A model generated the notes under the pieces. It made no database searches, was not told where the DNA came from, and saw only the letters and a program-made list of their open reading frames with translations. Below, one piece after another: positions 15,204 through 21,400 of a stretch of 64,000 nt of DNA. Location of the stretch: positions 1,240,001-1,304,000 of the forward strand of contig NC_092679.1 in the NCBI RefSeq assembly GCF_964355755.1, read 5' to 3'. Positions within the stretch are counted from its first letter, which is position 1. Every line of letters starts with the position of its first letter. The translations under genes were made by a program, and so were the position numbers. Source of the stretch: Antedon mediterranea (taxonomy: Eukaryota; Echinodermata; Crinoidea; Comatulida; Antedonidae).

Positions 15204-15449
15204 ATGGCAGCTTTAGACGAAGCTGATTTTGAACGGAGAAAACAGATAAGTGTTCGTGGTATAGCACAGGTTGAAGATGTGACTACGTTAAAAAAGTCAT
15301 TTAATCGTCATCTTCATTACTCGCTAGTAAAGGACCGAAACGTAGCCACCTCCAGGGATTTTTTCATAGCCCTCGCACACAGTGTGCGCGATCACTTGGT
15401 AGGCCGATGGATAAGAACTCAACAGCACTATTATGAAAAAGATCCAAAG
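15204..15449 (+). CDS. GlyP: Glycogen phosphorylase alternative first exon 1a (canonical regulatory N-terminus)
   Basis: It encodes 82 residues from its own ATG to DPK, ending at a GT donor in phase 0. It carries RRKQISVRG, matching the phosphorylase-kinase site around Ser14 (Lys at -3, Arg at +2). [13 protein letters not shown] includes Asp42 and Arg43, and [12 protein letters not shown] includes Arg69, Gln71, Gln72 and Tyr75 (rabbit muscle numbering). All known phosphorylation and AMP contacts in this segment are kept. The start is chosen because the next upstream in-frame region does not resemble the family. Confidence 0.9.
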
Positions 15450-18400
15450 GTAGGCATTTAAATTGATTAGGCTTATTATACGAGTCGTACAGGTAAAAAA
15501 CAGGTTTAAAAACTGATTTATTGAGTTAGAGAGGCTGTATAAACATACGGTTACATTTTGGGAATACAATACTGTCAATAATAGACTCACTGCAACAGTG
15601 CAATGATGATCAATTTATTTATTGTTTATTTATTGACATTTTAAAATGTAATTATCAAAGGGTATTATTATGCTACATAAGCGTTATCAAAAATATTGTG
15701 TGTAATGCATGATGGGAAGGAAATATATTATAATAATATTTAATAATAATATAACCTAGGCCTAATAAAAAAAGTTTTTATTAAATTCTGTGGTGCTGTT
15801 GCTTCTAATTCCTTCCAATCATGCATCAGGCACGCTATTTGCGATAAACCTTAATAAGCCTTTAATACAAGTAGTATTTAAGAAATGAATAGACTGCCCT
15901 CAATATTAAGAGGAGGTCCCTGAATTAAGTTTGGTGCCGTTTGTCTCATTAACATAAGAGGATGATGCGGTCTTGAGTCCCACACACACACATAACTTAC
16001 TCACCAAGAAGATGGCAGCTACAGATGAAGTAGACGTCCAGAAGCGAGGCCAGATTAGCGTGCGGCATATAGCTCAGTTGGATGATGTGGTAGCATTTAA
16101 AGACACATTTAATCGCCATCTTCATTGTTCGCTGGTAAAAGATCGGAATGTTGCGACATCTCGGGATTTCTTTATGGCCCTTGCTCATACAGTGCATGAT
16201 CATTTGGTTGGAAGATGGATTCGTACTCAACAACATTATTATGAACATGACCCTAAGGTTTGTTATTAATTTGTTGAACCTTATTGTTATAAAAATCATG
16301 TGTGTGAGAAGGTCTGAGATAATATGCCTTTAAATGCTTGTGTTAATCTCATAATATTGTGTAATTGTGTAAAATAAATATGTAAAACATTTTTGCAGAC
16401 ATTTTTTTTAATGAACATATTTGTTAAATAAATAAATAAATCCCTGATGATAAATCTTCTTTTGTAAATAAATTTGTCTTTCACATAATTACAAATTAAT
16501 AAAAATACAAATGAAGCAAATAAATTATACTATTATAGGCCTATAGTATTTTATTTTATTCAAACTCATTCAACAGCGGGAAACCCGCCCCTTACAGAAT
16601 GGAATAAACTTTAACATATAAATATATATAAATCTTAAAATCTAACAATACAAAATTATAGAATTTTACTAATTTTATTACAAAAACAATTATAACGGTC
16701 AAAAAAGAGATCAATAGAATTATCTTTAACAACACAATTATTAAAAAGAAGACAAATACTTGAGATAAATCCATTCTTGGTAACATTAACACGACAATAC
16801 GGCACATAAAGAAGATTACATTTGGAATTACGAGTACGACAACCAACAGCTTACTTGTAATACACATTTTACACATACCCTGTCCTGTACTATTTATTGG
16901 TATCCACAGTTGTTGCTAAATAATTCACTCCGGCGTCTTGCTAAGAAACTTCTCACTAATGAAATCTGTCTGATAATATATGTATAGGTATGTAGCGTGG
17001 TAACTAATTAACCTATAGTTTGCCAACTACTACTGCTCGCATTGACTGTGTTGCCATTTGCTGTATCTTATTGCCGTTTATTTACGAATAGTTTTTGGAT
17101 GAAATTTCCAATCGAAATGCTAATTTCTTTCACAATATTCAATGAATGTTTCTGTTTTTGTTGTAAACTTCAATCAATTTGTTTTCAATTACCACAGGAC
17201 TTCTTGTTTACGAAAGAGCTTCAATGTCTATTTAGAACCCCACACATTTTTTGTCAAAACAAATAAATAAAATTGAAAAGAAATAAAATACTACAAAGAT
17301 AAAGGCTAACGTAAAATAAATATGTGTTAACCGGGCTAGTTAAAAACTTAATCTGTAATCTCAGTTTTAAATGATTTAATGCAGATTCATCGATTTTCTA
17401 TAGTTTAGTGTTTGAAGGTTGAACAGGATTGTTATTATTATTTCAACTTGATTAGGCAACAATGACAGTTATGGAATGCACTGTCATGTATAGGAAGTGG
17501 AATATTTCCAGGTACAGTAGATCCTATTTGCTTCCGTGCTTACTCACTGTCATTCCTGGATTCTACTACTACCTTTCGCAAAACATGGCCGACAAAGATG
17601 TCTTACTATGTCACGATCGGTTTAGCCGCCAAGTATCCTTGCAGGGTTTTGCGCAAGAAGAAGACATCGCGGAAATGAAATCCGCATTCAATCGGCATTT
17701 GCACTATTCACTAATGAAAGATCGTAACACCGGTACAAAGGTTGATTTCTATTTGGCGTTGGCGAATACAGTTTTTGACAGTATGGCCGGGCGTTGGATA
17801 CGTACCCTGCAACATTATGACGTACAAGACCCTAAGGTATTGCTGATGTTTCAATTACAATCTGTTTAATCATGGAGAAATAAGTTATCAAACAGGGCCG
17901 GAAGTTATGCCACAGATAGTTAATATCAATTTTTAATCATAAGATTTGTTAAATTTTGGTGAATAATTGTTATGTACCAAAATGTAATGTAACATAACAT
18001 AGAATACATCATAATATTATATAACTTGCTTAATGCTGTATTTTATCAATTGTGACTTATGCTATGCTTCAGTGCACAATGAATTGGTTTATAATTTTAC
18101 CAGGGACGTATAATTCCCTGTTTCTACATACATTATGACATATTACTTTTTACATTATTATTATTTTTACATTATTATTCGTAGTAAAATATCCATTGGC
18201 CATCGTTATGATACACATGATTGAACATCAGATAAAATGTGAACTTTATATAATGTCACTTGCATCAAAGGTTATAGTTCAAATAGTTTTGAGGTCATTC
18301 TGCATTGATTAAAATACCATAGTTGACTTTCTTGCAGTTACAATATAATGTACGATATGTGATGTACATATTATGTATTTCTTTACATTATATTCTTATC

Positions 18401-21400
18401 TATTTTGTTTAGATTCAGTATGTATACTTACTGTGTTATAAGTTCGAATGACATCCATAAATTATTAGTTAAATCAATTAAAATATGAAATATTTAACAA
18501 AATTAAGAGAGCAAAAAAAAGGGGGAGAGGGAGCGAGCTATTTAATATTTCGACAGATAACTGAAGAAGGTTTTAATAAGCTTTTTTTTGTATATTTAGA
18601 GTAAATAAAATTGAAAGTTTGTCAAATTTTTGACAAAAACTGATAAACAATAGGTTTCTTTGTTAAGTCGTTTACCATAGGTTGTAATAATCAATGGAGT
18701 GTTTAATTTTTTTTTCTATGTCCGTAGTGTAGATATAATTCTATTGTTATATTTTGTCAATCATTCAGTAATTTCAGCCTTGCCCTGTATTTTTTTATGT
18801 ACAATTAAAAAATGTAGGCCGACCAATAATATTATTTGCAAAAAATTATGGAGCCTTGAGGAGAGTACCTTGAAAATTGGACATTACATATAGGCCTATA
18901 AATACTGTACAATGCAATTACTGAAAAAGGATGCTGTTGCATAGGTCTACTAACAACATACAAAGCAATTACTGGAATAGGATGCTGCTACTAACGAAAG
19001 TATTCGAAAGTAAAGGTGATAACATATTGAACCCGCTCCGCCTCTTCCTTCCCATCAATCATTTTTAAGCGGAAGAAACAACTTCTATAAATATGGCTTG
19101 CCTTATCAAGTACCATGGTAGATGGGTTACTCTGTACATCCTAAATATACTCCTTTAAATTAATAAGTCGCCTCCGAATTTTAAAATGAGGATACAACCA
19201 AATGTTCGACCGAGATTCACTTTACCAGGGAGTCATGCTAATGTTATGTTTTGCTTTATTTCAGCGGATATATTACTTGTCTTTGGAGTACTATATTGGC
19301 CGGACACTGACCAACACTATGGTCAATCTGGGCATTCAAAGTGAGTGCGATGAAGCTATGTATCAGGTAATTATTCGTTATTATTAATTATGTTCAATTG
19401 TCAATTTATTTATAAATTATTATTATTATTATTAATAATATCTGTATGACGAATTATTATCAATATTTGAAAATAAAAAATGATTTAATTTAAGTATTGA
19501 CATAACAATAATCAACACATTTTGTTTGTCTGTTTACAGCTTGGTCTAAATATAGAAGAACTGGAAGAAATAGAAGAGGATGCAGGGCTTGGCAACGGCG
19601 GCCTAGGAAGGTTGGCAGGTAATTCATTATTGTTCAGTTCTTTTTAATACAAATGTTGTTTTGCGTTTCCATGCTATTTGTGATGAAAGCGAATCCATTG
19701 ATTGAAATCTACTAATATTATTTATTTAAAGCTCTGTCTACACTATCAAACTAGTTTGACAAAAAAGTATGATGTGCCCAAATATGGTAGTGATATGCTT
19801 AAATATGGTAGTGATATGACATCATTGTTTTGTTGTCACAAGTTTGATAGTGTAGAGAGAGCTTAATAATTCTTAAGCATGTTTGACATTTATTCATATC
19901 TTTTGCTGGACATAATTGTAGCATGTTTTCTCGACTCCATGGCAACGCTTGGTCTTGCTGCATATGGGTATGGCATCCGATATGATTATGGAATCTTCAG
20001 TCAAAAAATAAAAGATGGCAGACAAGTAAGAATATTAATTTTAAGGCTTTAATTAGAATAGATTATCTGTACCACAACTATTGAAATCAGAACTTGTTTA
20101 TTACTTACAAACAATATAAATTCCATTTAGCATTTAGAATACGTTTGTTTCTTTTCACATTCACAATATAAATGGGTACTAGAATGCACAGATTATCACT
20201 AATAAAGCTCTGTCTACACTATCAAACTAGTTTGACAAAAAAAGTGTGATGTGCCCAAATATGGTAGTGATATGACATCATCATGTCCATATTTGGCCAC
20301 ATTATATTTGTAACATAAAATTTGATAGTGTAGACAGATCACTAACAGCTTATAGTGTGCAATATTTCTTATTTCTTATTTCAAGTTCTTTTTTGCTTCT
20401 TGCTACAGAGATGACTTAGATGACTAAAATCTTACTCTCATTATGATTCTTTACCATATTAAAATCTGTACAATACTGTGCTTACAACATTCTCTTTAGT
20501 TTTTCATATATACAGTATTTCCATATGTTGTTTCACTTTATTTCAAAAGATTGAGGAACCAGATGATTGGCTGAGATATGGCAACCCTTGGGAGAAAGCT
20601 CGTCCTGAATACATGATTCCCATCAATTTCTATGGAAGAATTGAACATAAAGATGGGAAAGTAAAATGGGTTGACACCAAGGTAAGTTTAATGAGCCTAC
20701 CTTGATATATAAACACATGTTGACAAGTCCACTCTAATGCATTATCCTATCGTGGTCTCAGTTTAGCCCCACCCTGGCGCATTATCCTATCCTGGTCTCG
20801 GTTAAGACCCACCCTGATGCATTATCCTATCCTGGTCTCAGTTTAGCCCCCACCCTGGCGCATTATCCTATCCTGGTCTCAGTTTAGCCCCCACCCTGGG
20901 GCATTATCCTATCCTGGTCTTAGTTTAGCCCCCACCCTGGGGCATTATCCTATTAAATTACCTTTCAGAAAAACATTAAGAAAACAAATTATTAACACTT
21001 TTCTTGTGATTTTTAACAATATATTTTAGATTGTATAATAACCATCAAAATTACAAGTGAGAATCAATATCATAATAAGGCATTTGATGAAAATGCAGAC
21101 CGTCTTGAAATGATGTGACATGTTTCATTTTAGATTGTGTTTGCGATGCCTTATGACAGTCCAACACCTGGTTACCATAACAACACTGTAAACACCATGC
21201 GTCTATGGTCTGCTAAATCTCCTAACAGTTTCAATTTAAGTTTCTGTAAGTTTATACTTATTATTATAAGTTTACTCTTATTGTAACCTTACTGAATACA
21301 TTCAACTATCCTTTTATTATTTATCCTCATGTTTTACTTTTTAAGCAAAGTTGTTGCATACTCCAATTCCAAGGGTGTGGCATTCACAAGCATAATACTT

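What the first reader, a model, noticed from the sequence alone, without database searches (positions are those of the whole stretch)
15204..19366. One glycogen phosphorylase gene with three mutually substitutable first coding exons
Three exons in a row (15204, 16012, 17585) each encode the whole N-terminal regulatory segment from ATG to DPK, and each ends at a phase-0 donor matching the single acceptor at 19265. The catalytic body occurs once. Seen directly: three intact reading frames with donors. Known: in vertebrates, regulatory diversity comes from three separate genes (PYGM, PYGL, PYGB). Inference: this animal makes three isoforms that share catalysis but differ in control, through alternative promoters. 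I do not recall a description of this arrangement, but could not search.
Basis: partly seen in the sequence, partly recalled or inferred. Interest (0 to 1): 0.88.

Follow-up and report, generated by a model that had tools for sequence, protein, structure and literature searches.

The report
Glycogen phosphorylase with three swappable starts
In this animal a single gene for the enzyme that breaks down glycogen carries three alternative, long-preserved opening segments, so it can probably make three differently controlled versions of the same enzyme, a job that vertebrates give to three separate genes.

Summary
Three exons (1a 15204-15449, 1b 16012-16257, 1c 17585-17836) each run ATG...DPK, end in AAG|GT at phase 0, and precede one intact phosphorylase body of 19 exons (19265-26378, 771 aa). 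In the held genome these are the only exon-1 matches, and this is the only body found. The exons are 55-77% identical in protein. Their silent sites are near saturation while the protein is constrained (pS 0.70-0.98, pN 0.13-0.30), so all three are old and were kept by selection. The exon 1/2 boundary is where human PYGM has its own (c.243/244, inferred from a splice mutation). 1a is canonical and 1b nearly so; 1c keeps Ser14, Arg43 and Arg69 but has R16Q, V45T, R60F, Q71L and Y75D, which suggests altered AMP and kinase control (inferred). No RNA was available: junctions and promoters are not shown. The layout is that of variable-first-exon clusters such as UGT1/GCNT2. Six paper searches aimed at such a gene listed no description of it; related animal genomes could not be searched. 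Verdict: real, a new variant of a known kind, interest 0.6.

The parts
15204..15449 (+). alternative first coding exon 1a (82 codons), canonical N-terminus: Ser14 site KQISVR and the examined AMP-site positions (42, 44, 45, 67, 68, 71, 72, 75) all as in human PYGM
16012..16257 (+). alternative first coding exon 1b (82 codons), 77% identical to 1a; K11G, G17H, E22D, R60H; the examined AMP-site positions kept
17585..17836 (+). alternative first coding exon 1c (84 codons), 55% identical to 1a; keeps S14, D42, R43, N44, W67, R69, Q72, but R16Q, V45T, A46G, R60F, Q71L, Y75D
15450..16011 (+). 562-bp interval that would hold the start site of 1b if it has its own promoter (inferred); its first 28 bases still resemble the bases after exon 1b (18 of 28)
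16258..17584 (+). 1327-bp interval that would hold the start site of 1c if it has its own promoter (inferred)
19265..19366 (+). common exon 2 with the single shared acceptor, highest-scoring of the gene's 19
19265..26378 (+). shared catalytic body, 19 exons, 771 aa and stop; only phosphorylase body found in the held genome

Best explanation
This is one glycogen phosphorylase gene with a small variable-first-exon cluster. The ancestral first coding exon (5' leader plus residues 1-80) was duplicated in tandem twice, long ago, without the catalytic body. Most likely each copy is transcribed from its own upstream promoter; when transcription starts at 1a or 1b, the first exons further down have no strong acceptor and are left in the intron, so each donor joins the single strong acceptor of exon 2. 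The result would be three enzymes with the same active site but different N-terminal switches: 1a canonical (Ser14 phosphorylation plus AMP), 1b near-canonical with a changed stretch beside Ser14 (K11G, G17H), and 1c keeping Ser14, Arg43 and Arg69 but losing Tyr75 and Gln71 of the AMP pocket and Arg16 beside Ser14, hence probably poorly AMP-responsive and differently phosphorylated. Shown: exons, frames, donors, single copy in the held genome, purifying selection. Inferred: transcription from separate promoters, the splice junctions, and the biochemical differences.
For: Three intact exons with phase-0 donors and one intact body; only three exon-1 matches and one body in the held genome. Constraint on each pair: 1a-1b pS 0.76/pN 0.13, 1a-1c 0.98/0.30, 1b-1c 0.70/0.29; Fisher P 4e-16, 2e-18, 4e-7 on rounded counts. 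The 1b-1c comparison does not involve 1a, and even with every replacement put on one branch, dN (0.145-0.38) stays far below dS (2.0 or saturated). The ATGs all have A at -3 and G at +4. Likeness of 1a and 1b runs gap-free 28 bases past the donor (18 of 28; random pieces mean 8.0, 0 of 5000 reach 18; stretch chosen from the BLAST match), as a DNA-level tandem duplication would leave. No remnant of body exons between the first exons (one chance-level hit elsewhere, E 3.8). Human PYGM has a splice-site microdeletion named c.244-3_244-2 (PMC5688471, abstract and passages), which puts its exon 1/2 boundary after codon 81, the same place as here. Matches to the phosphorylase kinase alpha/beta C-terminal domain exist in this genome (3 of 5 candidates); the catalytic subunit was not searched for. 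AMP-site residues D42 and Y75 and indole-site R60 are named in PMC9081730 (passages).
Against: No transcript, junction or 5'-end data. The three donors score low against the gene's own. Fixed-consensus scans of the 500 bases before each ATG gave only scattered matches: TATAAA at -125 and -313 of 1a and at -474 of 1b, none before 1c; no motif discovery was run, and BLAST between the three upstream intervals found nothing better than E 0.047, whereas UGT1 has a conserved upstream motif. Changes of 1c at AMP-site positions are not more than its general divergence gives: 3 of 8 AMP-site positions within 13 of 44 otherwise invariant positions, P=0.44. Related animal genomes could not be examined, so conservation of the trio is untested.
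Confidence: 0.8

Rival explanations
1. One promoter upstream of 1a with a noncoding leader exon, spliced in mutually exclusive fashion to an acceptor in front of each of the three coding exons. Same three isoforms, but choice is made by splicing, not by promoters.
For: Acceptor-like sites occur in the 300 bases before each ATG: best scores 5.3 (1a), 3.3 (1b), 5.7 (1c), within the low end of the gene's acceptors, 2.6-14.0.
Against: Those scores are reached by about 2-9% of all AG sites in the window, so they are near background; in the vertebrate clusters with this layout each variable first exon has its own promoter (UGT1, GCNT2; PMC1885805 passages).
Confidence: 0.12
2. Only 1a is used; 1b and 1c are relic duplicates not yet destroyed.
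For: 1b and 1c are more diverged from human PYGM than 1a (50 and 39 of 70 against 58 of 70); donors are weak.
Against: Silent sites are near saturation while frames, Ser14, donors and many residues persist; neutral simulations do not reproduce this (0 of 2000 for each of two pairs). 1a's own donor is the weakest of the three.
Confidence: 0.04
3. 1b or 1c belongs to a second, tandem phosphorylase gene whose body was lost from or collapsed in the assembly.
For: The genome copy held here may be incomplete, and withheld stretches read N.
Against: Bodies as diverged as the first exons (55-77% identity) should not collapse (inference); no N in the window; the intervals between the exons carry no body remnant; no other body found in the held genome.
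Confidence: 0.03

Closest known systems
UGT1 and GCNT2 variable-first-exon clusters of vertebrates
   Same: Tandem, homologous first exons each encoding the N-terminal part, spliced to one set of constant exons, each with its own promoter in human, mouse and rat (PMC1885805 passages; UGT1A also in PMC9013439 passages). GCNT2 also has three variable exons.
   Different: Different enzyme; here the variable part is a regulatory segment (phosphorylation, AMP, dimer contact), not a substrate-recognition domain as in UGT1; own promoters and splicing are not shown here.
Vertebrate PYGM / PYGL / PYGB isozymes
   Same: Three phosphorylases that differ in control; same exon 1/2 boundary as human PYGM (inferred); 1a is 58 of 70 identical to PYGM residues 11-80.
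   Different: Mammals use three separate genes (PMC9081730 passage); here one body with three N-termini, so only residues 1-80 can differ.
First-exon use in fish glycogen phosphorylase
   Different: The passage describes one exon's use, not tandem homologous first coding exons; details are in supplements that I could not open.
Tandem duplicated exons used one at a time
   Same: Homologous exons in tandem, mostly ancient (PMC9741552, start of abstract in the listing); duplicated initial exons occur in Drosophila hydra, of which at least four of nine can act as transcription starts (PMC9013439 passage).
   Different: Here they are first coding exons of a metabolic enzyme that carry its allosteric switch.

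Membership tests
glycogen phosphorylase (PF00343) | catalytic body homologous to the family profile | tested here: met
   14 exon matches between profile positions 3 and 713, with some gaps; continuous 771-aa frame
animal-type phosphorylated glycogen phosphorylase | Ser14 site in the N-terminal tail and phosphate-contact arginines 43 and 69 | tested here: met
   S14, R43, R69 present in 1a, 1b and 1c; that R43 and R69 contact the phosphate is recalled; phosphorylation itself not tested
AMP-responsive glycogen phosphorylase | AMP-site residues D42 and Y75 (PMC9081730), I68, Q71, Q72 (docking contacts at the AMP site, PMC6100603), N44, V45, W67 (recalled) | tested here: inconclusive
   1a and 1b: all eight kept; 1c: D42, N44, W67, I68, Q72 kept, V45T, Q71L, Y75D, so not met by sequence; activity not testable
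variable-first-exon cluster (UGT1/GCNT2 kind) | tandem homologous first exons with equal-phase donors before one constant region | tested here: met
variable-first-exon cluster (UGT1/GCNT2 kind) | each first exon joined to the constant exons in mRNA | not testable with these tools
   no RNA data
variable-first-exon cluster (UGT1/GCNT2 kind) | own promoter before each first exon | tested here: inconclusive
   fixed-consensus scan only, scattered matches; BLAST between the three upstream intervals gave nothing better than E 0.047

The most novel reading that the evidence does not exclude
One gene supplies subunits with three different regulatory N-termini on an identical catalytic body, able to form mixed dimers; isoform 1c has lost the AMP switch (Y75D, Q71L) and changed its kinase (R16Q, with a Ser14 context that fits a loose AMPK-like pattern), so tissues choose between Ca2+/AMP-driven and energy-kinase-driven glycogen breakdown by promoter choice alone.
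Probability: 0.15. Interest if true: 0.85.

Novelty: new variant of a known kind. Interest (0 to 1): 0.6.

Why it matters
Glycogen phosphorylase is the textbook allosteric enzyme. If the three isoforms are made, this animal solves by alternative first exons what vertebrates solve by gene duplication, with the catalytic body held exactly constant. That is a natural domain-swap experiment: differences in AMP response, phosphorylation and dimer behaviour can be assigned to residues 1-80 alone, and mixed dimers become possible from one locus. It also suggests a simple structural reason: the regulatory N-terminus lies in one exon with a phase-0 end, apparently in humans too, and is thus easily duplicated as a module.

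Tried and rejected
Rejected: relic exons (selection) and collapsed paralogues. Looked for remnants of body exons in the rest of the window: one chance-level tblastn hit at 2165-2257, E 3.8. Looked for shared sequence in the three upstream intervals: best BLAST E values 0.068 (1a-1b), 0.047 (1a-1c), 0.31 (1b-1c); other short AT-rich flank matches reached E 0.001-0.005, not at matching places. Tested whether 1c's changes concentrate on AMP-site residues: they do not (P=0.44). A loose AMPK-like pattern (recalled) fits Ser18 of isoform 1c (the Ser14 equivalent), but also four other places of that isoform and three of each other isoform, so it is weak. Sought relatives of the exon trio in the prokaryote and viral contig collections, which were not expected to hold animals: 32 pattern matches each, none confirmed. 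Sought mitochondrial COX1 in the genome to infer the animal group by its genetic code: none. Pfam gave no family for the three exons alone at E<=0.001. An early exon model with two wrong boundaries gave frame breaks and was corrected from the sequence. Structure prediction was not run. A paper search on AMP-site residues gave nothing and a second only a docking paper.

Literature limits: the six searches aimed at the finding are 3 papers; 3; 13; 6; 10; 82 papers, 15 listed, none of the 15 holding 'glycogen phosphorylase'; the 67 others not seen. Of the papers listed I opened passages of nine for this question; the rest I saw as listings only. None of what I saw describes this arrangement; the nearest is the trout passage.
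Full report
What is there. The window is part of contig C10 of a 354-Mb genome held as 18 contigs; the animal is not named and I could not identify it. Three exons, 1a 15204-15449, 1b 16012-16257 and 1c 17585-17836, translate to 82, 82 and 84 residues from ATG to DPK. Each is followed by GT at phase 0, and each ATG has A at -3 and G at +4. Nineteen common exons from 19265 to 26378, with GT and AG at the joins, give 771 aa and a stop. 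In-frame stops lie 123, 57 and 132 bases upstream of the three ATGs; 1a and 1c have further in-frame ATGs upstream, so slightly longer N-termini cannot be excluded.

Single copy. A six-frame search of the held genome with PF00343 scored 16 candidates and gave 14 matches at E<=0.001, all at this locus. Searches with exon 1a and exon 1c each gave exactly three places, these exons, at E<=10. Withheld or missing stretches could hide others. The intervals between the first exons carry no recognisable piece of the body.

Age and selection. Over 71 gap-free codons, 57, 41 and 39 residues agree for 1a-1b, 1a-1c and 1b-1c. Silent differences per silent site are 0.76, 0.98 and 0.70, replacement differences per replacement site 0.13, 0.30 and 0.29; Fisher P 4e-16, 2e-18 and 4e-7 on rounded counts. 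In simulated neutral change to the same nucleotide distance, open frames remained in 5% and 2% of 2000 runs and the observed amino-acid identity in none (run for 1a-1b and 1a-1c only). The exons have therefore been under protein-level selection for a long time. No date can be given without relatives. The likeness of 1a and 1b continues gap-free for 28 bases into the intron (18 of 28), which fits a DNA-level tandem duplication that took the donor along.

Why exchange is possible. A McArdle splice-site deletion in human PYGM is named c.244-3_244-2 (PMC5688471, abstract and passages), so human exon 1 also ends after codon 81. Residue by residue this is the K80|R81 join used here (mature numbering recalled). 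Exon 1 thus holds the tail with Ser14, the cap and the first part of the AMP pocket as one phase-0 module.

What differs. In mature muscle numbering: 1a keeps the examined residues of the Ser14 site (11-16) and the AMP site. 1b keeps the AMP-site residues but has K11G, and G17H and E22D where the other four sequences agree. 1c departs at 13 of the 44 positions that are the same in PYGM, PYGL, 1a and 1b: I13V, R16Q, V24I, V40M, V45T, A46G, R49V, H57N, H62S, L63M, V64A, Q71L, Y75D. It keeps S14, D42, R43, N44, W67, R69 and Q72. Residue 60, named as part of the indole inhibitor site (PMC9081730 passage), is R in 1a, H in 1b and F in 1c. D42 and Y75 are named AMP-site residues in the same passage; Q71, Q72, Y75 and I68 are AMP-site docking contacts in PMC6100603 (passage). 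Loss of Y75 and Q71 should weaken AMP binding, and R16Q should change kinase recognition (the role of R16 is recalled; the papers I opened did not state it). Three of eight AMP-site positions changed, which is not more than the general rate (P=0.44), so relaxed constraint in that pocket is as good a reading as adaptation.

How it works. Most likely each first exon has its own promoter and its donor joins exon 2, whose acceptor scores highest in the gene (matrix made from the same sites). The acceptor-like sites in front of the three exons score near background, reached by 2-9% of all AG sites. The donors of the three exons are weak relative to the other 18, and 1a, the canonical exon, is weakest, so weakness is no mark of disuse. 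Promoter scans were uninformative. Matches to the phosphorylase kinase alpha/beta C-terminal domain exist in the genome.

Comparison. The layout is that of the UGT1 and GCNT2 clusters: tandem variable first exons, each with its own promoter, before constant exons (PMC1885805 passages; PMC9013439 passages). By anatomy it belongs to that kind; mRNA joining and own promoters are not shown. Mammals reach three phosphorylases through three genes (PMC9081730 passage). A partial precedent for first-exon regulation in this enzyme is a trout study that reports differential use of the first exon of a glycogen phosphorylase B isoform (PMC8321248 passage). The searches aimed at a description in print listed none; I saw listings and short passages, one search showed 15 of 82 papers, and the library lacks most subscription papers. 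Database annotation of relatives, where such isoforms may already be predicted, could not be consulted.

Verdict. Real, well preserved and functionally suggestive; not described in what I could search, but of a known kind of gene layout. Interest 0.6.

Noticed in passing
27300-64000: From about 1 kb after the phosphorylase stop (by eye from 27300, Tandem Repeats Finder rows from 28115) to the window end there is a satellite-like array with units of about 98, 149, 190 and 477 bases and a steady AT skew of 0.16-0.18 from 28001 on.
   Followed up: partly
20739-20953: Minisatellite of 5.3 copies of a 41-base unit inside the intron between exons 5 and 6.
   Followed up: no
1369-1914: Open frame that looks by eye like a scavenger-receptor cysteine-rich (SRCR) domain exon; another open frame with a transmembrane-like stretch ends at 14209, about 1 kb before exon 1a.
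   Followed up: no
19729-19860 and 20206-20340: Two copies of a short interspersed repeat with inverted ends in neighbouring introns, seen by eye.
   Followed up: no
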